Part shown: piece after piece, positions 36,642 through 47,390 of the stretch
How the letters are laid out: every line of letters begins with the position of its first letter
How positions within the stretch are numbered: position 1 is the first letter of the stretch
Source: Flavivirga algicola
Lineage (GTDB): Bacteria > Bacteroidota > Bacteroidia > Flavobacteriales > Flavobacteriaceae
Assembly (NCBI RefSeq): GCF_012910715.1
Contig: NZ_JABBHF010000005.1
Coordinates: 124,001-188,000, forward strand
Reading direction: 5' to 3'
Length of the DNA: 64,000 bases
Notes under the pieces: generated by a model
Told to the model about the DNA's origin: nothing
The model's input: only the letters and a program-made list of their open reading frames with translations
Databases searched by the model: none
Program-made: the position numbers and the translations under genes

Positions 36642-37091
36642 TTAGTTGTCTAATAGTGGTTTTCCAATTTCATCAATTTCATCATAATCATTATTGGCTT
36701 TTGGATCGAGGCCATACATGTTTGGTCTATGATCCCCATCTGTACACATTAAAACGAGATACCAAATTCTTCCAACTAGAGGGATTAAATTTATAAAAAG
36801 ATAGCCCCCACTTTTTCCAGTATCATGCAAGCGCCTTACATTAACTGCCAGCCAGGGAATTAAAGTACCCAGTAAGTAACCAATTATAATGATGCCAAAT
36901 AATGAATTTTCAAAAAGATCTTCTAGAGCAACTGATACAAAACCTAGTAAAAAAAACAAACCAATTTGAAACAAAAAAAACACCCAATATTCCTGTCGCC
37001 TTGCTCTACCAGAAAAATTAGCGTAGTTATCTATTAAAACAGTTAGATACCATTTTAAAAAACCATGTCTCTCGACTTTCAATCTATTCAT
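36642..37091 (-). CDS. DUF805 inner-membrane protein
   Basis: The 149-residue protein has the DUF805 signature: NFSGRARRQEYWVFFLF, then three or four helices, with VRRLHDTGKSGG before the last. Function unknown; E. coli relatives are YhaH and YhaI. It overlaps the end of trpA by 8 bp, so it is coupled to the trp operon although it has no known role in tryptophan synthesis. Confidence 0.9.
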   Translation of the reverse strand: MNRLKVERHGFLKWYLTVLIDNYANFSGRARRQEYWVFFLFQIGLFFLLGFVSVALEDLFENSLFGIIIIGYLLGTLIPWLAVNVRRLHDTGKSGGYLFINLIPLVGRIWYLVLMCTDGDHRPNMYGLDPKANNDYDEIDEIGKPLLDN

Positions 37092-37854
37092 GGTTTAATA
37101 TAGAGCTTACAAAATTACCGATTTTGCTAATCCCTTCATTGGTTATATGTTTTACAAAAGCACTACCAATAATAGCACCTTTGGCATAAGTAGTTGCTTG
37201 AGTAAACGTTTGATTATTGCTAATACCAAATCCGACAATTTGAGGGTTGTTAAGGTTCATGCTACCTATACGCTCAAAATACTGGGTTTGTTCTTCTCCA
37301 AAACCAACTTTGGCACCAGTGGTGCTGGCACTACTAACCATATAAATAAACCCATTAGAAATAGAGTCTATGTAGCGAATACGGTCATTGCTAGTCTGTG
37401 GTGTTATTAAAAATACATTTATTAAACCATACTTTTCAAAGATGGGTTGATATTTTTCATGATATACATCTACTGGTAAATCGGGGATTATTAAGCCGTC
37501 AATACCGATTTCTTGACATTTTTTGCAAAAAGCTTCTACACCATATTGAAACATCGGATTAAAATAACCCATAATAATCAAAGGAATATTAACCGATTGT
37601 CTAATGTCTTTTAGTTGCTCAAAAAGAACCTCGGTTGTCATGCCATTTTTTAAGGCTTGTGTAGAACTTGCCTGAATGGTTGGACCATCTGCTAAAGGAT
37701 CACTAAAAGGTAAGCCTATTTCGATCATATCAACACCGTTTTTTTCTAAATCCTTAATGATAGAAGCGGTATCGTTGATATCTGGATAGCCCGCTGTGAA
37801 GTATATAGAAAGTAACTTCTTGTCTTCTTTTAGTTTTTGATTTATTCTGTTCAT
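37084..37854 (-). CDS. trpA: Tryptophan synthase alpha subunit
   Basis: TrpA cleaves indole-3-glycerol phosphate to indole, which is channelled to TrpB. Catalytic Glu45 lies in MIEIGLPFSDP and Asp56 in LADGPTIQ. GAKVGFG and a C-terminal GSAFVKHI are also conserved. At 256 residues it is full length. Its ATG is preceded by six T/A bases and a perfect small palindrome at 37865-37882, and it lies 296 nt after trpB. Confidence 0.96.
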   Translation of the reverse strand: MNRINQKLKEDKKLLSIYFTAGYPDINDTASIIKDLEKNGVDMIEIGLPFSDPLADGPTIQASSTQALKNGMTTEVLFEQLKDIRQSVNIPLIIMGYFNPMFQYGVEAFCKKCQEIGIDGLIIPDLPVDVYHEKYQPIFEKYGLINVFLITPQTSNDRIRYIDSISNGFIYMVSSASTTGAKVGFGEEQTQYFERIGSMNLNNPQIVGFGISNNQTFTQATTYAKGAIIGSAFVKHITNEGISKIGNFVSSILNHE

Positions 37855-38150
37855 TTTTTTGTCATTCCTGCGAAAGCAGGAATCTATTTTTTAATTATAT
37901 TTTTCTTTTGTTCATTTTTTGCTTGTCCAAAAAACGAACCAAAAAAAGACATCCAAGTCAAGGAATTTTTCAGTTTTTCAAACTGAAAACCAATTTGAAA
38001 ACTCCGCGTCGAACTGTGTTCTCCTGTTTTCGGAGCTTTTCTTCATTTATTCTTCGCCTTGGCAGATCAATTCGCAGAATTGACTCGGGACTTGAATATT
38101 TAGAATGTTCTGTTTTTAACTTAAGTTCTAACTTTATTTTTTATGTGCAT
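37855..38150 (-). repeat. Composite repeat region between trpB and trpA
   Basis: On the plus strand this begins with the module TTCCTGCGAAAGCAGGAA (37865-37882). A TTTGTTCATTTTTTGCTTGTCC-like stretch (about 37905-37926) follows, with an AACGAACCAAAAAAAG partner, then several inverted pieces such as TTTTTCAGTTT/CAAACTGAAAA and AGATCAATTCGCAGAATTGA. It shares its TTTGTTCATTTT start with the repeats at 41964 and 42857. No gene is supported. Confidence 0.65.
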
Positions 38151-39335
38151 TTATATTTTAAAGTAATCAATATAATTCTCTAAATCTTTATCACCCCGGC
38201 CAGACAAACTCAGCACTACCACATCGTCTGGTTTAAAACTTTTTTGTTCGAAAATAGCAAGGGCATGTGAGCTTTCTATAGCAGGAATAATGCCTTCTAA
38301 TTCGCATAATTTTAATCCAGCTTTCATAGCTTCGTCATCTGTAATAGCCATAAATTCTGCACGTCCTGTTTTACATAAATGGGCATGCATAGGTCCTACA
38401 CCTGGGTAATCTAAACCTGCAGATATAGAATAAGGTTCTGTTATTTGACCATCGTTTGTTTGCATTAATAAGGTTTTGCAACCATGTATAATACCTTCTT
38501 TCCCCAAAACAGATGTTGCGGCACTTTCACCAGAATCGACGCCCAAACCAGCAGCTTCAACGGCAATAATATTAACATCGGTTTCATGTAAAAAATGATA
38601 ATAGGTTCCAGCAGCATTACTTCCTCCACCTATGCAAGCTACCACATAATCGGGGTTTTCCCTTCCTTCTTGTTCTTTTAATTGCCATTTGATTTCTTCT
38701 GAAATAACAGATTGAAATTTGGTCACCATATCTGGATAGGGGTGTGGGCCAATAGCTGAACCTATAATATAATGTGTGTCTACTGGGTTGTTTATCCAAT
38801 CTCGAATCGCTTCATTGGTAGCATCTTTTAGGGTACGGCTTCCCGAAAGAGCAGGCACTACGGTAGCACCTAACATTTTCATTCTAGCTACATTGGGGGC
38901 TTGTCTTTTTATATCGATTTCTCCCATATAAACAATGCATTCTAAGCCCATTAAAGCACAAACGGTAGCGGTGGCAACACCATGTTGCCCTGCACCAGTT
39001 TCGGCAATAATTCTGTGTTTGCCCAGACGTTTTGCCATAAGTATTTGGCCAATGGTATTATTTATTTTATGGGCTCCTGTATGATTGAGATCCTCCCGTT
39101 TTAAATAAATTTTGGTATTGTATTTTTCTGAAAGGCGTTTTGCAAAATAGAGCGGGGAAGGACGTCCTACATAATCTTTTAAAAGTTGATCGAACTCCTT
39201 TTGAAACTCAGGTTCTGCCATTACTTTAAGGTAGTTTTGGCGTAACTCTTCTACATTTGGATACAGCATTTCGGGAATATATGCTCCTCCAAATTCGCCA
39301 TAGTATCCTTTTTCGTTTACGTTGTAATTTTTCAT
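38151..39335 (-). CDS. trpB: Tryptophan synthase beta subunit
   Basis: TrpB joins indole and serine with pyridoxal phosphate. The Schiff-base lysine is in [12 protein letters not shown] (Lys90) and the phosphate-binding loop is GGGSNAAG. I start at 39335 ([16 protein letters not shown], 394 residues). The in-frame ATG four codons earlier, at 39347, belongs to a repeat-type flank. That flank, GGAATGACAAAAAA, also precedes trpA and trpG. Confidence 0.96.
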
Positions 39336-39347
39336 ATTTTTTGTCAT

Positions 39348-39424
39348 TCCCTCTAAGGAGAGTATCTGTTTAATTTTGATTATAATTTATAATGGATTCC
39401 GCATCACACTTCGACGCCGCTCAG
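39348..39424 (-). repeat. Repeat-derived spacer overlapping the end of trpF
   Basis: The spacer contains a TTGTCATTCC start-flank module at 39341-39350 and, at 39408-39424, ACTTCGACGCCGCTCAG. The latter is the same family as the copies at 41995 and 42888 and overlaps the trpF stop codon at 39421. Confidence 0.6.
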
Positions 39425-40089
39425 TTTATGAGTACGGATGACAAACTTTGTTTAAACTCGTTTAATTTTTCAATACTTTTCAATCCTGGTTCTATTTCGA
39501 ATTTACTATTTACATCTAAGGCATAACAATATTTTGAAGCCTCACTGTGTTTGAATTTTTTAATGTCTTCAATTTGGTCTAACCCAATACCTCCACTTAA
39601 GAAAAAAGGTTTGGTTGAGGGATAATCGTTTAATACACTCCAATCGAAGGTATACCCATTCCCCCCAGGTAATTTTCCTTTTGTGTCAAATAAAAAATAA
39701 TCACAGACACCTTCGTATGGTTTTAAAATCTCAAAATTGAATTCGTCTTTTATAGAAAATACTTTGATTATTTCAATCTGAATAGGTCTTGTATTCTTAT
39801 TACTTCGCTCCTTAAAAAACTGTTTCAGTTCTAAACAATATTCTGGTGATTCTTTTCCGTGTAATTGAACAGCTTGAAGTTGATGCTTATCTATTTGTTC
39901 GATAATATATTCCAGACTTTCGTCTACAAAAACCCCTACTTTTTTAATGGATTCTGGTAATTTTGGAATATGACTATTAAAATGTCTTGCAGATTTTTTA
40001 TAAAATATAAATCCAAGATAGTCAGGTTGCAAATTGGCAATTTGAGTGATGTTATCTTTATATTTCATTCCGCAAACTTTCAGTTTCAT
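39421..40089 (-). CDS. trpF: Phosphoribosylanthranilate isomerase
   Basis: The enzyme performs the Amadori rearrangement of phosphoribosylanthranilate. It starts KLKVCGMKYKDNI, with the catalytic cysteine, and keeps VGVFVDES, QLHGKESPEYC and FFLSGGIGLDQI; the conserved aspartate lies in FDTKGKLPGG. The last residues before the TGA (about SSVLIN) lie in a repeat and may not be ancestral. It overlaps trpC by 4 bp. Length 222 residues is normal or slightly long. Confidence 0.94.
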   Translation of the reverse strand: MKLKVCGMKYKDNITQIANLQPDYLGFIFYKKSARHFNSHIPKLPESIKKVGVFVDESLEYIIEQIDKHQLQAVQLHGKESPEYCLELKQFFKERSNKNTRPIQIEIIKVFSIKDEFNFEILKPYEGVCDYFLFDTKGKLPGGNGYTFDWSVLNDYPSTKPFFLSGGIGLDQIEDIKKFKHSEASKYCYALDVNSKFEIEPGLKSIEKLNEFKQSLSSVLIN

Positions 40090-40871
40090 GGTTGTAAGTC
40101 TTTTATAAATTGTTTGGCACTTGCGCCTGCATTATCCGTTTTCATAAAGTTTTCACCAATTAAAAACCCTTGATATCCATAAGGTTTCAATTCTTTAATA
40201 GCTTCAATATTACTGATGCCACTTTCTGAAACTTTAACAAAATCATCTGGAATTAATGAGCTTAATGTTTTGCTGGTTTCTAAACTAACTTCAAAGGTTT
40301 TTAAGTTTCTATTATTTACGCCTAGCATATCTAGCGTGGGCATGACAGATTTATGTAATTCTTCTTCGTTATGAACTTCTAATAAAACATCTAAATTCAG
40401 ACGTTTTGCAAATTCTGAGAATTGTTTAATTTCCTCTCTGGTTAAAATGGCTGCTATTAATAAAATAACATCGGCACCATGTGCTTTAGCTTCTAACAGC
40501 TGATATTCATCTATAATAAATTCTTTTCGAAGTAATGGTAAATTACAGCTTGCTCTGGCAAGTAATAAATCGTCTAGGGAACCACCAAAATACTTGCCAT
40601 CTGTTAAAACCGACATACCGCAAACGCCTGCATCTTCGTAACCTTTTGCTACATCTTGAACGTTTAGACTTTGATTTATTACTGATTTTGAGGGTGAACG
40701 TCTTTTATGTTCTGCAATAATACCTGATTTGCTGTGTCGTAAGTTATGTGCTAGGGAAATCGTTTCTCTTTGGAACAAAACAGATTGTTCTAATTGCGTT
40801 ACTGGAATTAAACTTTTTCGAAGGTCAACTTCCTTACGTTTGTCTTTAACTATTTTATCTAATATGGTCAT
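40086..40871 (-). CDS. trpC: Indole-3-glycerol phosphate synthase
   Basis: The enzyme closes the indole ring with loss of CO2. The barrel motifs are IIAEHKRRSPSKS (with the catalytic lysine), LTDGKYFGGSLDDL, PLLRKEFIIDEYQ and GVNNRNLKTFEV, and it ends with SESGI and GFLIGENFM. Length is 261 residues. Its 3' end overlaps trpF. An 88-nt spacer before it contains a CAGTGTT/CAGTAATCAGTG-type short repeat. Confidence 0.95.
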   Translation of the reverse strand: MTILDKIVKDKRKEVDLRKSLIPVTQLEQSVLFQRETISLAHNLRHSKSGIIAEHKRRSPSKSVINQSLNVQDVAKGYEDAGVCGMSVLTDGKYFGGSLDDLLLARASCNLPLLRKEFIIDEYQLLEAKAHGADVILLIAAILTREEIKQFSEFAKRLNLDVLLEVHNEEELHKSVMPTLDMLGVNNRNLKTFEVSLETSKTLSSLIPDDFVKVSESGISNIEAIKELKPYGYQGFLIGENFMKTDNAGASAKQFIKDLQP

Positions 40872-40959
40872 TTGTGGTTTTCAGTGTTAGGTAATCGGTG
40901 TTCAGTAATCAGTGAAATGGGATAATGTTTCGAACTGTTTATTGCATACTGTAAAATCA

Positions 40960-41952
40960 TTATTTACTTAACTCAATTAATGTATCTAAACTCGCTTTCG
41001 CCTTTCCTGAAAGCAGTGATTCTTTTGCTTGCTCAAAACCTTCTTTGTGGCTAATTTGCTTGGTTGTTGCTATGGCTAAGCCAGCATTAGCACAAACCAC
41101 ATTGTTCTGAGGTTCGGTTCCTTTTCCTTCGATAACATTTACGAATATTTTGGCAGCATCTTCAACCGTATTTCCTCCAAAAATAGATTCTTGAGTGATT
41201 GTTGAAATCCCTAAATCTTCTGGTGAAAACATGGTTTCGGAATTATTAGAAATAACTTTAGTATTGCCTGTTAGAGAAATTTCATCATAACCATCTAATG
41301 CGTGAACGATACTATAATTTTTATCTGTATTTTGATATAAATAGCCATATAAGCGTAACAATTCCAGATTAAAAACTCCTACCATTTGGTTTTTAGGAAA
41401 TGACGGATTAACCATGGGGCCTAGCATATTAAAAAATGTTTTTACACCTAGTTCGCGACGAATAGGCGCTACATTTTTCATGGCAGGATGGAATAATGGC
41501 GCATGCAGAACACAAATACCTGCTTTGTCAATTGATTTTTTTAGGAAATCTTCGTCATTAGAAAATTTAATACCTAAATGTTCCATAACATTCGAAGACC
41601 CGCAAGCAGAAGATACGCCATAGTTACCGTGTTTAGCTACTTTAACTCCAGCTCCAGCAGATACAAATGATGATAGGGTTGAGATATTAAAAGTGTCTTT
41701 GCCATCACCACCAGTTCCGCAAAGATCAATAGCATTAAAGTCTTTTAAATCTATGGCAATACATAATTCTAAAAGGGCATCTCTAAAACCACGTAACTCC
41801 TCCAAGGTAATACTTCGCATCATAAAAACCGTAAGAAAAGATGCAATTTGGCTTTGGTTGTACATGCCGTTAGAGATGTTTACCAATACTTGTTTTGCTT
41901 CTTCACTTGAAATGCTTTCGTGATTTATAAGTCTGTTTAATAAGTCTTTCAT
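40960..41952 (-). CDS. trpD: Anthranilate phosphoribosyltransferase
   Basis: The enzyme joins anthranilate to PRPP. The PRPP site is CGTGGDGKDTFNIST and the anthranilate site includes KHGNYGVSSACGSSNVME. Helical start ISSEEAKQVLVNI and HALDGYDEIS are conserved. At 330 residues it is full length and not fused to trpG. The 5' flank is the beginning of a long repeat at 41964. Confidence 0.95.
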   Translation of the reverse strand: MKDLLNRLINHESISSEEAKQVLVNISNGMYNQSQIASFLTVFMMRSITLEELRGFRDALLELCIAIDLKDFNAIDLCGTGGDGKDTFNISTLSSFVSAGAGVKVAKHGNYGVSSACGSSNVMEHLGIKFSNDEDFLKKSIDKAGICVLHAPLFHPAMKNVAPIRRELGVKTFFNMLGPMVNPSFPKNQMVGVFNLELLRLYGYLYQNTDKNYSIVHALDGYDEISLTGNTKVISNNSETMFSPEDLGISTITQESIFGGNTVEDAAKIFVNVIEGKGTEPQNNVVCANAGLAIATTKQISHKEGFEQAKESLLSGKAKASLDTLIELSK

Positions 41953-41963
41953 TTTTCTCTTTT

Positions 41964-42178
41964 TATTTGTTCATTTTGTCCTAAATACAAAATCCTTCGA
42001 CTACGCTCAGGATAAACTAAGCCAAAAATCATATCAAGATTAGGAAATTGCTAAAGCAATATTCACTTTCTGAATTACGTGCTTGAAGCTGTGCTTCGCA
42101 TCTCCATTCCTTCTTTTATTATTTCTGAATTTTGATGATTCCGACTGTGTCGGAACTCCAAGTTCAATTCAGATTTCA
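41964..42178 (-). repeat. Long intergenic repeat, copy 1 (between trpG and trpD)
   Basis: About 215 bp similar throughout to the copy at 42857. Shared pieces in order on the plus strand: TTTGTTCATTTTGTC, ACAAAATCCTTCGACTACGC, AGCCAAAAATCAT, AGGAAATTGC, ACGTGCTT, CATCTCCAT, TTCCGACT.TGTCGGAA. The last is an inverted repeat. It lies 12 bp upstream of the trpD start. Confidence 0.85.
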
Positions 42179-42242
42179 TTGTTTAATTATCATTATAACC
42201 TTTTCAACTGAGTAGGTACGGCTCACTGCTTACAGAATACTG

Positions 42243-42809
42243 CTAACTATTAAGCCAGTTTTCTAATATTTTTTTTCCGTTTGGTGTTAATACAGATTCT
42301 GGATGATACTGAACGCCTTTTACATCGTAGACTTTATGTCGCAACGACATGACTTGTCCGTTTTCATCAAACGAAGTGGCTTCTAAACTATCAGGTAAAT
42401 CAGGGTTGACTACCCAAGAATGATATCTGCCAACTTCTATATTTTTATTCAGACCTTCAAAAATGGGCTCGTCATCGACACTAATGGTGACATTTGTTGA
42501 AACACCATGATATACTTCATCTAAATTAATGAGCGATCCACCAAAAACCTCACCAATAGCTTGCTGTCCTAAACAAACACCTAAAATACTTTTAGTAGGA
42601 GCAAATCTTTCAATGATTGGTTTTAATAAACCAGCTTCATCTGGAATACCTGGACCTGGAGATAATACAATTTTATCAAAAGGTTCTACATCATCTAAAA
42701 CCAATTTATCATTTCTAACAACGATTACCTCACAATTTAAATCTTCTAGGTAATGAACTAAATTGTATGTAAAACTGTCGTAATTATCTATAACTAATAC
42801 TTTTGTCAT
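42243..42809 (-). CDS. trpG: Anthranilate synthase component II (glutamine amidotransferase)
   Basis: TrpG supplies ammonia from glutamine to TrpE. The class I triad is Cys79 in GVCLGQQAIG and His/Glu in VQYHPESVLT. It starts VLVIDNYDSFTYNLVHYL, typical for TrpG/PabA. As no separate pabA is in the window it might serve both pathways. At 188 residues it is full length. The start flank is the GACAAAAAATG module. Confidence 0.95.
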   Translation of the reverse strand: MTKVLVIDNYDSFTYNLVHYLEDLNCEVIVVRNDKLVLDDVEPFDKIVLSPGPGIPDEAGLLKPIIERFAPTKSILGVCLGQQAIGEVFGGSLINLDEVYHGVSTNVTISVDDEPIFEGLNKNIEVGRYHSWVVNPDLPDSLEATSFDENGQVMSLRHKVYDVKGVQYHPESVLTPNGKKILENWLNS

Positions 42810-42814
42810 TTTTT

Positions 42815-42838
42815 GTCATTCCTACCTTGGCAGGGATT
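42815..42838 (-). repeat. Small palindromic module before trpG
   Basis: GTCATTCCTACCTTGGCAGGGA lies five bases before the trpG start codon. It is related to GTCATTCCTGCGAAAGCAGG before trpA (37861) and GTCATTCCCTCTAAGG before trpB (39343). Confidence 0.65.
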
Positions 42839-42856
42839 TATTTTTAGTTAAACTTT

Positions 42857-43062
42857 TTCTTTGTTCATTTTGTCTTGATACAAAATCCTTCGACTACGCT
42901 TAGGATAAATCAAGCCAAAAATCATGTCAAAATCAGGAAATTGCTTAAGCATCATTCGCTTCCAAAACTACGTGCTTAAAGCTTCGCTTTACATCTCCAT
43001 GTCTTCACTCATTATTTGTTGATTTTGACTTTTCCGACTATGTCGGAATTTCAAGATTGATT
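42857..43062 (-). repeat. Long intergenic repeat, copy 2 (between trpE and trpG)
   Basis: About 205 bp, same order of pieces and same orientation as copy 1: TTTGTTCATTTTGTC, ACAAAATCCTTCGACTACGC, AGCCAAAAATCAT, AGGAAATTGC, ACGTGCTT, CATCTCCAT, TTCCGACTATGTCGGAA. No coding frame spans it. Confidence 0.85.
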
Positions 43063-43108
43063 TATATTTTAAGTTTCTATTTCTATTCTTTAATTAATTC
43101 CTGACTTT

Positions 43109-44512
43109 TTATATTTCTTCTGCTAATTCAATAGCCTTTGTTAATGCTCCTAATTTATTATATACTTCTTGTAATTCGTTTTCCGAGTTGGATTTTGAAA
43201 CTAACCCAGCACCAGCTTGCCAATGTAGCTTGTGGTTTTTACTCAAGAAGGTTCTAATCATAATGGCATGATTAAAATTACCTTCAAAATCCATAAAGCC
43301 TATAGCACCACCATAAAAAGAACGACTTGTTTTTTCGTATTGCTCGATAAGTTGCATTGCTCTGTGTTTTGGTGCGCCGCTCAATGTTCCCGCAGGAAAT
43401 GTGTCGGCAACCACCTGCATCGTAGAGGTGTCTTGATGTTTTTGACCAGTAACCTTACTTACTAAGTGAATAACGTGAGAGAAAAACTGAACTTCTCTGT
43501 AAGTATCCACATTAACACGGCTTCCGTGACGACTCAAATCGTTTCTGGCTAAATCTACTAACATAACATGCTCAGCATTTTCTTTATCATCTTTAACCAA
43601 TTTCTTAGCTAATTTGGCATCTTGAGAATCATTCCCAGTGCGTTTAAATGTTCCTGCTATGGGGTGAATCTCGGCTTTGCCATCACTTACAATAAGTTGT
43701 GCTTCTGGCGAACTACCAAAAATCTTAAAATTGCCGTAATCGAAATAAAATAGGTAAGGGGAAGGGTTTATGCTTCTTAAAGCACGGTATACATTAAATT
43801 CATCGCCTTTAAATTCTTGTGCAAAGCTTTTAGATAAAACCAACTGAAATACATCCCCTCTAGCACAGTGCTTTTTTGCTAACTCTACATGCGTTTTATA
43901 TTCATCATCTGTTAGATTAGAGGTAATGTCTCCTTTTGAGTAAAAACTGTAAGAAGCAAAGTTTTTAACTTTGATGAGGTGGTCTATTTCATCAATATTA
44001 TTTTCAGTATTATGACAATGAGCAAAAATATAGGCTTCGTTTTTATGATGATTTATGGCAATGATATTCTGATAAACAGCATAGTATACATCTGGAATGT
44101 GTGTTGAATCATCTTTTTTAGAAATGTCAATATCTTCGAAGTAACGAACAGCATCATAGGCTATATAACCAAAAATACCATTATTTATAAATTTAAATTC
44201 GGTATCAGAATTAACGTCGAATCGCTTAGTGAATTGGTGTATTTCTTCAGAGACGTCAATACCATCCGTTATTGGTTTTTCTATAGTACTTCCATCTGGA
44301 AATGTTTGATTAATAACTTCATTTTCAACTTTGATAGAAGCTATCGGATTAAAACAGATATAAGAAAAACTGTTGTCATTTGCATGATAATCACTACTTT
44401 CTAGTAAAATACTGTTAGGATACTTATCTCTAATTTTTAAGTAAATACTAACAGGTGTAATCGTATCTGCCAGAATTTTTTTGTAATGCGTGTATAAATT
44501 ATATGTTGTCAT
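43109..44512 (-). CDS. trpE: Anthranilate synthase component I
   Basis: TrpE makes anthranilate from chorismate with ammonia from TrpG. The N-terminal half contains ILLESSDYHANDNSFSY, where LLES is part of the tryptophan feedback site. The catalytic half shows DLARNDLSRHG, FPAGTLSGAPKHRAM and GGAIGFMDFEGN. It is 467 residues long. It is the first structural gene and follows the attenuator by about 30 nt. Confidence 0.96.
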   Translation of the reverse strand: MTTYNLYTHYKKILADTITPVSIYLKIRDKYPNSILLESSDYHANDNSFSYICFNPIASIKVENEVINQTFPDGSTIEKPITDGIDVSEEIHQFTKRFDVNSDTEFKFINNGIFGYIAYDAVRYFEDIDISKKDDSTHIPDVYYAVYQNIIAINHHKNEAYIFAHCHNTENNIDEIDHLIKVKNFASYSFYSKGDITSNLTDDEYKTHVELAKKHCARGDVFQLVLSKSFAQEFKGDEFNVYRALRSINPSPYLFYFDYGNFKIFGSSPEAQLIVSDGKAEIHPIAGTFKRTGNDSQDAKLAKKLVKDDKENAEHVMLVDLARNDLSRHGSRVNVDTYREVQFFSHVIHLVSKVTGQKHQDTSTMQVVADTFPAGTLSGAPKHRAMQLIEQYEKTSRSFYGGAIGFMDFEGNFNHAIMIRTFLSKNHKLHWQAGAGLVSKSNSENELQEVYNKLGALTKAIELAEEI

Positions 44513-44542
44513 ATTAATTTTTATTATTAAAAATATGTATTA

Positions 44543-44574
44543 AAAAAGGCTTGTCGTGAATGACAAGCCTTTTT
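44543..44574 (-). terminator. trp attenuator terminator
   Basis: Perfect 8-bp G/C-rich arms, GGCTTGTC at 44548-44555 and GACAAGCC at 44562-44569, enclose a 6-nt loop and are extended by A/T pairs. Transcribed leftward, the stem ends in a U run (plus-strand A run at 44542-44547), about 30 nt before trpE. TCGTGAA at 44554-44560 can pair with TTCACGA at 44608-44614 in the leader, giving a candidate antiterminator. Confidence 0.88.
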
Positions 44575-44608
44575 CGATATTTTAAGTTTTAAATATACTA
44601 GGTTTTCT

Positions 44609-44665
44609 TCACGAACGTAAGTTTCTGAAGCTCCACCACCAAGTATTATTTAAAATTGTATTCAT
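44609..44665 (-). CDS. trpL: trp operon leader peptide
   Basis: An 18-codon frame from the ATG at 44665 to the TGA at 44609 reads MNTILNNTWWWSFRNLRS, with three tandem Trp codons at 44641-44633. It lies between a TAnnTTTG promoter and an intrinsic terminator ahead of trpE. This is the layout of ribosome-mediated attenuation. When Trp-tRNA is short, the ribosome should stall on the TGG codons, break the CTTCA/TGAAG stem (44626-44630 with 44607-44611) and free TCGTGAA to pair with the terminator loop. The stall logic is established for proteobacterial trp leaders; its use here is inference. Confidence 0.85.
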   Translation of the reverse strand: MNTILNNTWWWSFRNLRS

Positions 44666-44684
44666 CTTTAATTTTTTGTTGGTT

Positions 44685-44715
44685 CAAATATAGAAATGAA
44701 AATATAAATACGCAA
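44685..44715 (-). promoter_or_regulatory. trp operon promoter
   Basis: On the minus strand TTG (44715-44713), a 20-nt spacer and TATATTTG (44692-44685) match the phylum consensus. Transcription would begin near 44678, about 13 nt before the leader ATG. Confidence 0.75.
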
Positions 44716-47313: not shown

Positions 47314-47343
47314 TTAAAAATTAATAATCCCTTTCTAATAAGA

Positions 47344-47390
47344 AAACCTTTTGAATATAAATAATATATATTCAAAAGGTTTTTTTATGG
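47344..47390 (+). terminator. Terminator after the small membrane protein
   Basis: AACCTTTTGAATATA pairs with TATATTCAAAAGGTT across a short loop, and TTTTTT follows. Confidence 0.9.

What the first reader, a model, noticed from the sequence alone, without database searches (positions are those of the whole stretch)
44543..44715. Classical tryptophan attenuator in a Bacteroidota trp operon
The sequence shows a promoter, an 18-codon leader with three tandem TGG codons, a short stem within the leader, and a U-tailed terminator about 30 nt before trpE. A 7-base segment (44608-44614) can pair with the terminator loop and two bases of its arm (44554-44560). Transcription attenuation of this kind is best documented in proteobacteria. 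Here translation starts without Shine-Dalgarno sequences, so coupling may work differently. The antiterminator pairing is weak at the stem itself, so the exact switch is inference.
Basis: partly seen in the sequence, partly recalled or inferred. Interest (0 to 1): 0.8.

Follow-up and report, generated by a model that had tools for sequence, protein, structure and literature searches.

The report
Tryptophan-sensing leader switch before trpE
A short RNA in front of the tryptophan-making genes of a marine flavobacterium carries a tiny Trp-rich reading frame and a terminator that together very probably switch the genes on when tryptophan runs short; the element is already catalogued, but comparison with its relatives shows how the switch is wired.

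Summary
The element is not new: it matches Rfam RF01692 (Bacteroid-trp), 58.7 bits, cut-off 49, and heads a trpEGDCFBA operon, probably of the genus Flavivirga (inferred). Of 133 matching loci, 131 have trpE downstream and 2 trpD. At fixed columns 509 of 571 cells pair, with 18 double changes against a shuffle mean of 4.2. In a folding model with 9 nt hidden in polymerase, 88 of 94 leaders favour antitermination with the ribosome stalled on Trp and 88 of 94 termination with it at stop; the result depends on the hidden length. By-products: 30 of 134 leaders have the AUG 4-5 nt after the -7 box and may be near-leaderless; the lineage has his, phe and ilv peptide leaders without an Rfam match above cut-off.

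The parts
44713..44715 (-). -33 TTG, 20 nt before the -7 box
   Evidence: sequence; TTTG at about -33 is the B. fragilis consensus quoted in PMC7366714; PMC6847099 saw little of it in F. johnsoniae
44685..44692 (-). -7 box TATATTTG (TAnnTTTG); predicted start of transcription about 44680-44681
   Evidence: sequence; TAnnTTTG within 60 nt of the leader AUG in 135 of 144 leaders, against 0.04 per 60 nt in downstream sequence; 4-5 nt box-to-start spacing from PMC6847099
44609..44665 (-). leader peptide ORF MNTILNNTWWWSFRNLRS*, no Shine-Dalgarno sequence seen by eye
   Evidence: translation; tandem Trp codons in 132 of 132 parsed leaders, three in 125 and two in 7
44633..44641 (-). regulatory codons UGG UGG UGG
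44638..44655 (-). segment A of the outer stem, including the first Trp codon
   Evidence: MFE, Rfam structure; A:A' duplex -10.1 against -7.2 shuffled, p<=0.05 in 31 of 83 representatives
44587..44603 (-). segment A', partner of A
   Evidence: as for A
44607..44630 (-). hairpin B, sequesters segment 2 when no ribosome is present
   Evidence: MFE, -5.8 kcal/mol; more stable than shuffles by 2.7 kcal/mol on average, p<=0.05 in 33 of 83
44608..44614 (-). segment 2 UCGUGAA, contains the leader UGA stop codon; antiterminator strand
   Evidence: covariation with the terminator loop; geometry; folding model
44542..44575 (-). intrinsic terminator GAAAAAGGCUUGUC-AUUCAC-GACAAGCCUUUUUU
   Evidence: fold -19.0 kcal/mol
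44554..44560 (-). segment 3 UUCACGA: five loop bases plus two bases of the terminator 3' arm, partner of segment 2
43109..44512 (-). trpE, first regulated gene
   Evidence: best NCBIfam model trpE_most, 428 bits, below its curated cut-off of 518
37084..42809 (-). rest of the operon: trpG 42809-42243, trpD 41952-40960, trpC 40871-40086, trpF 40089-39421, trpB 39347-38151, trpA 37854-37084
   Evidence: ORFs, NCBIfam (trpF is below its models' cut-offs, the other five reach at least one)

Best explanation
It is a ribosome-mediated tryptophan transcription attenuator of the Bacteroid-trp family (RF01692). RNA polymerase transcribes an 18-codon leader. Without a ribosome, hairpin B inside the outer stem A:A' hides segment 2 and the terminator forms (modelled). 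With Trp-tRNA plentiful the ribosome reaches the UGA inside segment 2 and covers it, so the terminator forms (modelled). When Trp-tRNA is short the ribosome stalls on UGG UGG UGG, disrupts A and part of B and leaves segment 2, 18 nt downstream, free. Segment 2 then pairs with the loop and the start of the 3' arm of the terminator while the base of that arm is still inside RNA polymerase, and polymerase reads on into trpEGDCFBA. The sequence parts, their conservation and the covariation are shown; ribosome stalling, the timing and read-through are inferred.
For: RF01692 above cut-off. TrpE downstream in 131 of 133 loci, TrpD in the other 2. Segment 2 lies 16-22 nt after the last Trp codon in 118 of 132; it is free with a ribosome on the last Trp codon in 131 of 132, and at least 5 nt of it are covered with a ribosome at stop in 120 of 132. 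Pair columns: 509 of 571 cells paired; slid registers at most 58%; 18 double changes against 4.2 for shuffles and at most 9 for slid registers; 0 of 1000 shuffles reach either value. Rewired but still complementary cases: L040, 11 bp UUUGUCGCAAU x AUUGCGACAAG, where the hairpin-B partner also changed; L142 GGAUUCAG x CUGAAUCC and L143 GCGAG x CUCGC (read by eye; both switch in the model). Folding model: stalled, antiterminator >0.5 in 88 of 94; at stop, terminator >0.5 in 88 of 94; with the middle region shuffled, mean P(antiterminator) 0.14 against 0.93 observed. For the window itself P(antiterminator) is 0.99 stalled and 0.00 at stop.
Against: No expression, ribosome or transcript-end data. 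The model is equilibrium folding without pseudoknots and depends on how many nucleotides polymerase hides: the antiterminator wins when stalled in 18, 32, 71, 88, 90, 91, 93 of 94 for 6, 7, 8, 9, 10, 11, 12 hidden, while the terminator at stop wins in 94, 92, 90, 88, 76, 65, 22. Six of 94 do not switch when stalled (L053, L056, L057, L063, L101, L137). Six of 94 lack the terminator at stop: L100, L120, L141 and L145 favour the antiterminator there, L041 and L144 neither. Without any ribosome 10 of 94 favour the antiterminator, L040 among them (all). In one genus of the order (L100, L117, L120, L125, L127, L131, L132) segment 2 pairs with the terminator's 5' arm and is not covered by a ribosome at stop. 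The dinucleotide-shuffle test of segment 2 reaches p<=0.05 in 57 of 83, not all. A hairpin C next to the terminator, which I suspected, shows no signal (1 of 83). The column shuffles do not keep relatedness.
Confidence: 0.88

Rival explanations
1. The leader and terminator form a basal or constitutive premature terminator with no tryptophan response; the ORF is only a translational pacemaker or reinitiation device.
For: No functional data; reinitiation from leader ORFs is proposed for Bacteroidetes among other phyla (PMC4833913, abstract and passages).
Against: Tandem UGG before trpE also in relatives found without the Rfam model (12 of 13; 78 of 79), the stop codon tied to segment 2 and the covarying alternative helix have no role in it. 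The window's leader stop lies 96 nt before the trpE AUG, whereas that paper's Bacteroidetes peak is at 11-14 bp.
Confidence: 0.07
2. The terminated leader is also, or mainly, a trans-acting small RNA or regulatory peptide, as recalled for rhizobial rnTrpL/peTrpL.
For: A short terminated RNA is expected in rich medium (inference).
Against: Cis linkage to trp genes in 133 of 133 loci; the peptide outside the Trp run is variable. Not directly tested.
Confidence: 0.03
3. Ligand- or protein-sensing regulation (T-box, TRAP, riboswitch).
For: None found.
Against: In the 20 kb searched around it Rfam gives only RF01692 above a gathering score; the Trp codon run is unexplained.
Confidence: 0.02

Closest known systems
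Rfam RF01692 Bacteroid-trp (Weinberg 2010, PMC2864571)
   Same: Full-length match over model positions 1-131, above the gathering score; Trp leader peptide, outer stem and inner hairpin; upstream of trp genes.
   Different: The Rfam model ends inside the terminator's 5' arm, with that arm unpaired in its structure line. The terminator hairpin and the segment-2/loop pairing are not in the model; they are added here.
E. coli trp attenuator (recalled; named in PMC6414381)
   Same: Trp codon run, 1:2 and 3:4 hairpins, alternative 2:3 helix, stop codon placed so that the finishing ribosome masks segment 2 (all recalled for E. coli).
   Different: The E. coli antiterminator takes the terminator's 5' arm (recalled). 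In 111 of 132 leaders here it takes the loop and the start of the 3' arm; 9 of 132 use the 5' arm alone. No Shine-Dalgarno sequence; the -7 box is of the Bacteroidota type.
Leaderless cysteine-leader attenuators of mycobacteria (Canestrari 2020, seen only as cited in PMC9031893, passage)
   Same: Codon-run attenuation from a leaderless ORF, as predicted for some relatives here.
   Different: Different amino acid and phylum. The window's own leader has a predicted 5' UTR of about 15 nt.

Membership tests
Rfam RF01692 Bacteroid-trp | Covariance-model score at or above the gathering score of 49 bits | tested here: met
   58.7 bits, model 1-131
Rfam RF01692 Bacteroid-trp | Located upstream of tryptophan biosynthesis genes in Bacteroidota | tested here: met
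   trpEGDCFBA downstream; nearest named relatives are Flavobacteriaceae
Ribosome-mediated transcription attenuator | Short leader ORF with a run of codons for the end product | tested here: met
   Three UGG in the window; two or three tandem UGG in 132 of 132 parsed leaders
Ribosome-mediated transcription attenuator | Intrinsic terminator before the first structural gene | tested here: met
   found by script in 132 of 133 loci
Ribosome-mediated transcription attenuator | Alternative antiterminator helix that excludes the terminator, with covariation | tested here: met
   covariation; the two exclude each other in a nested folding model. Whether they could coexist as a pseudoknot was not tested
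Ribosome-mediated transcription attenuator | Ribosome at stop masks segment 2; ribosome on the regulatory codons leaves it free | tested here: met
   Met for the window; 120 of 132 and 131 of 132 overall, with an assumed footprint of -15 to +15 around the P site
Ribosome-mediated transcription attenuator | Read-through rises when the charged tRNA is short | not testable with these tools
   needs cells or in vitro transcription
E. coli-type trp attenuator | Antiterminator pairs with the terminator's 5' arm (recalled) | tested here: not met
   0 of 7 pairs in the 5' arm for the window; 9 of 132 leaders use it alone

The most novel reading that the evidence does not exclude
Bacteroidota use a distinct geometry of attenuation: the antiterminator captures the terminator's loop and the start of its 3' arm, so the switch is decided only in the moment when polymerase sits on the U-tract with the base of the stem still inside it. 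It is read from leaders without Shine-Dalgarno sequence, and in part of the family from nearly leaderless ones. It stands beside a wider set of peptide attenuators for his, phe and ilv in the same lineage, without an Rfam match above cut-off, in which phe and ilv mostly use the 5' arm.
Probability: 0.5. Interest if true: 0.55.

Novelty: new member of a known kind. Interest (0 to 1): 0.38.

Why it matters
It turns a catalogued Rfam motif into a testable switch, with a named antiterminator helix supported by covariation, in a phylum that initiates translation without Shine-Dalgarno sequences. It also suggests that codon-run attenuation is a general mode of amino-acid control in Flavobacteriaceae and not a proteobacterial speciality, and that transcription-translation coupling must be tight enough there to support it.

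Tried and rejected
Hairpin C (44596-44577), proposed as an A'-containing hairpin next to the terminator: no more stable than shuffles in representatives (1 of 83 at p<=0.05); dropped as a functional part.

A threonine leader: the window has a sub-threshold Thr_leader match (29.7 bits, cut-off 55) and no Thr codon run; rejected. The two homoserine dehydrogenase genes are long open frames (815 and 1149 codons) whose start region was not reached in the fetched stretch, so a thr leader could not be judged.

His leaders: codon run and terminator are conserved (29 of 30, one of them, L180, with a poor terminator), but my folding switch did not reproduce antitermination (5 of 28); I do not claim their wiring.

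Absence of RF01692 as absence of the element: rejected. Of 20 no-hit genomes searched (of 62 without a hit), 13 had a full-length TrpE orthologue, and 12 of those 13 have the leader.

Literature: no paper describing the antiterminator of this family turned up in searches. Only open-licence PMC text was searched, Weinberg 2010 was seen in passages only, and its supplements could not be read. PMC4977773, the third paper naming Bacteroid-trp, was seen only in the listing.

Full report
What is there. On the minus strand the window carries a Bacteroidota-type promoter (-33 TTG 44715-44713, -7 TATATTTG 44692-44685), an 18-codon ORF MNTILNNTWWWSFRNLRS (44665-44609), a hairpin inside it (44630-44607), an intrinsic terminator (44575-44542) and trpE starting at 44512. 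The genes that follow are trpG, trpD, trpC, trpF, trpB and trpA (trpE scores 428 bits to trpE_most, below that model's cut-off but its best model; trpF is likewise below its models' cut-offs). The 137-nt leader folds 6.5 standard deviations better than shuffles.

What it is called. Rfam RF01692, Bacteroid-trp, matches 44685-44562 over all 131 model positions at 58.7 bits against a cut-off of 49. In Weinberg 2010 (PMC2864571, passages seen) it appears in Table 1 as RNA 'y', cis-regulatory 'y', switch 'n', Bacteroidetes. A 2019 paper on Flavobacterium psychrophilum (PMC6414381, one passage seen) states that the element lies upstream of the trp operon there and likens it to the E. coli attenuator. 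So the finding is a member of a known family. The Rfam model ends inside the terminator's 5' arm and leaves that arm unpaired, so the terminator hairpin and any antiterminator with its loop are outside it.

Whose genome. The nearest named TrpE is Flavivirga rizhaonensis, 96%. That contig is 79,187 bases long, the same length as contig C23 of the same-genus genome G009, so the genus is probably Flavivirga (inference).

Spread. RF01692 was found in 57 of 119 genomes (own genome included; 49 over the cut-off), 42 of 395 drawn across the phylum and 79 of 395 across the order; the filters for large sets lose weak matches, and the three sets overlap. I collected the 133 distinct loci. TrpE lies downstream on the same strand in 131; in the other two, L104 and L105, TrpD does. 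The script found both tandem Trp codons and a terminator in 132 of 133; L036 has the codons, but no terminator passed the script's rules, and it is left out of later counts. The Trp codons are part of the Rfam consensus, so their conservation in this set is partly selection. Less biased sets follow. Twenty genomes without a hit were searched with TrpE (of 62 without a hit): 19 had some match and 13 a full-length orthologue, and 12 of these 13 have a leader with tandem UGG and a terminator, L146 being the exception. Of 80 named relatives found through TrpE, 79 have upstream sequence and 78 have the leader; L255, with only 168 nt upstream, does not (this set overlaps the others in species). The Rfam model therefore misses part of the family.

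The switch. Segment 2, UCGUGAA, contains the leader's stop codon. Its partner UUCACGA is five bases of the terminator loop and two of the 3' arm. Among the 132 leaders the best helix in that zone has at least 6 bp in 129; it uses loop plus 3' arm in 111, 5' arm alone in 9, 5' arm plus loop in 6, all three in 5 and 3' arm alone in 1; there are 36 distinct sequence pairs. Because such a scan picks the best helix, two tests were made on 83 representatives under 80% identity. Against dinucleotide shuffles of the segment-2 region, 57 of 83 reach p<=0.05; the mean score is 16.4 own, 11.0 shuffled and 14.8 when the loop is taken from another species. With columns fixed by separate alignment of the two blocks, 509 of 571 cells pair, slid registers reach at most 58%, and there are 18 double changes against a shuffle mean of 4.2 and at most 9 in a slid register; none of 1000 shuffles reaches either value. 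These shuffles do not keep relatedness. The most telling single cases are rewired. In L040 hairpin-B side, segment 2 and loop all changed together (AUUGCGA, UCGCAAU, AUUGCGA). In L142 (GGAUUCAG x CUGAAUCC) and L143 (GCGAG x CUCGC) the pairing persists in other letters (read by eye).

Geometry. With a ribosome covering -15 to +15 around the P site (assumed), segment 2 is free when the last Trp codon is in the A site in 131 of 132, and at least 5 of its bases are covered at the stop codon in 120 of 132.

Folding model. Partition functions were computed on the RNA exposed when polymerase has made the seventh U, with 9 nt hidden. Ninety-four leaders were used: 83 representatives plus the 12, less L130, which has no run of four U (seen by comparing the printed rows with the list). 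With the ribosome stalled on the last Trp codon the antiterminator exceeds 0.5 in 88 of 94; with the ribosome at stop the terminator does in 88 and the antiterminator in 4; without a ribosome the terminator does in 83 and the antiterminator in 10. A mononucleotide shuffle of the middle region drops mean P(antiterminator) from 0.93 to 0.14. For the window the values are 0.99 when stalled and 0.00 at stop. The outcome depends on the hidden length: at 6 or 7 nt the antiterminator wins in only 18 or 32, at 8-10 in 71-90, and at 12 the terminator at stop wins in only 22. As the window's transcript grows, the antiterminator is displaced within the GCC of the 3' arm. So this antiterminator can only work if the decision is taken while the base of the stem is still inside polymerase. 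That is an inference, and it is the point where this family differs from the E. coli design (recalled), in which segment 3 is the terminator's 5' arm.

Exceptions. Seven loci of one genus in family f5 of the same order (L100, L117, L120, L125, L127, L131, L132), and L104 and L105, pair segment 2 with the 5' arm. In the seven the ribosome at stop would not cover segment 2. At stop the model favours the antiterminator in L100, L120, L141 and L145, and neither structure in L041 and L144; when stalled it keeps the terminator in L053, L056, L057, L063, L101 and L137. The logic of these must differ or the model is wrong there.

Outer stem and inner hairpin. A:A' is stronger than shuffles on average (-10.1 against -7.2; swapped partners -8.5) but p<=0.05 in only 31 of 83; hairpin B likewise, 33 of 83; a hairpin C next to the terminator shows nothing, 1 of 83.

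Start of translation. In F. johnsoniae promoters with 4-5 nt between -7 box and start were taken as probable, and 87% of the transcripts have leaders over 10 nt (PMC6847099, passages); in B. thetaiotaomicron about 3.7% of 5' UTRs are under 10 nt (PMC7366714, passages). Of 144 Trp leaders (132 plus 12), 134 have a TAnnTTTG box with the AUG at least 4 nt after it. The gap is 4-5 nt in 30, at most 9 in 49 and at least 15 in 73; among 86 non-redundant leaders 19 have 4-5. The window's own gap is 19 nt, a predicted 5' UTR of about 15 nt. So part of the family is predicted to be leaderless or nearly so; no start of transcription was mapped. A leaderless codon-run attenuator has a precedent in mycobacteria (PMC9031893, passage).

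Sibling leaders. In the same genome hisG, ilvD and pheA are preceded by MNFIQLHHHFHICSQAK, MKKQILNIVSFIVIVISSQR and MTTTVFYTYYNNWFYFFFSKRNEALYV, each followed by a terminator. Rfam gives no match to them above a gathering score; the ilvD leader has a sub-threshold Phe_leader match, 30.4 bits against 55. Among the 30 loci kept per gene (best of 44, 47 and 46 match rows, own genome included) a leader of the fitting composition plus terminator was found in 29 his, 29 phe and 19 ilv loci; scans for other codon classes on the same stretches gave 0-2 of 30. In the folding model 26 of 29 phe leaders switch when stalled, with a 5'-arm antiterminator, and 13 of 19 ilv leaders, mostly 5' arm plus loop; of the his leaders only 5 of 28 do (one dropped for a poor terminator). 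With the ribosome at stop the terminator holds in 27 of 29, 17 of 19 and 28 of 28. [quoted passage not shown] words beginning with Bacteroid or Flavobacter were not found in its main text. I found no paper on these his, phe or ilv leaders in searches; for search 46 I looked only at the 15 listed of 3,638.

Verdict. Real, correctly read, already catalogued. What is added is comparative evidence for the antiterminator, its unusual target, a wider distribution than Rfam's model sees, and sibling leaders. Shown: sequence parts, conservation, covariation. Modelled: the ribosome-dependent switch. Inferred: stalling, timing and Trp response.

Noticed in passing
L154 (hisG), L155 (ilvD), L158 (pheA) of the same genome; relatives L159-L247: His-, Ile/Val- and Phe/Tyr-rich leader peptides with terminators before hisG, ilvD and pheA, found in 29, 19 and 29 of 30 loci, without an Rfam match above a gathering score in the own genome.
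   Followed up: partly
window 42810-43108, 41953-42242 and 37856-37932: The trpE-trpG and trpG-trpD gaps (299 and 290 nt) share a repeat 81% identical over 218 nt, with a shorter piece (78 nt, 78%) in the trpB-trpA gap: an intergenic repeat present several times inside the operon.
   Followed up: partly
L155:867-920, minus strand: SAM-II riboswitch (RF01726, 47.7 bits, cut-off 44) beside the ilvD leader, on the opposite strand.
   Followed up: no
window 47337-47389: An AT-rich inverted repeat (about 19 bp arms) that matches plastid ccsA-ndhD 3' UTR hairpin models below threshold on both strands; probably an ordinary bidirectional terminator.
   Followed up: no
L104, L105: In these class-level relatives the Trp leader precedes trpD instead of trpE (in L104 followed by a trpF-like frame, by eye), and segment 2 pairs with the terminator's 5' arm.
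   Followed up: partly
L002, L008, L137, L139, L140 and others (30 of 134 leaders): Leader AUG only 4-5 nt after the -7 box, so the Trp leader mRNA is predicted to be leaderless or nearly so.
   Followed up: partly
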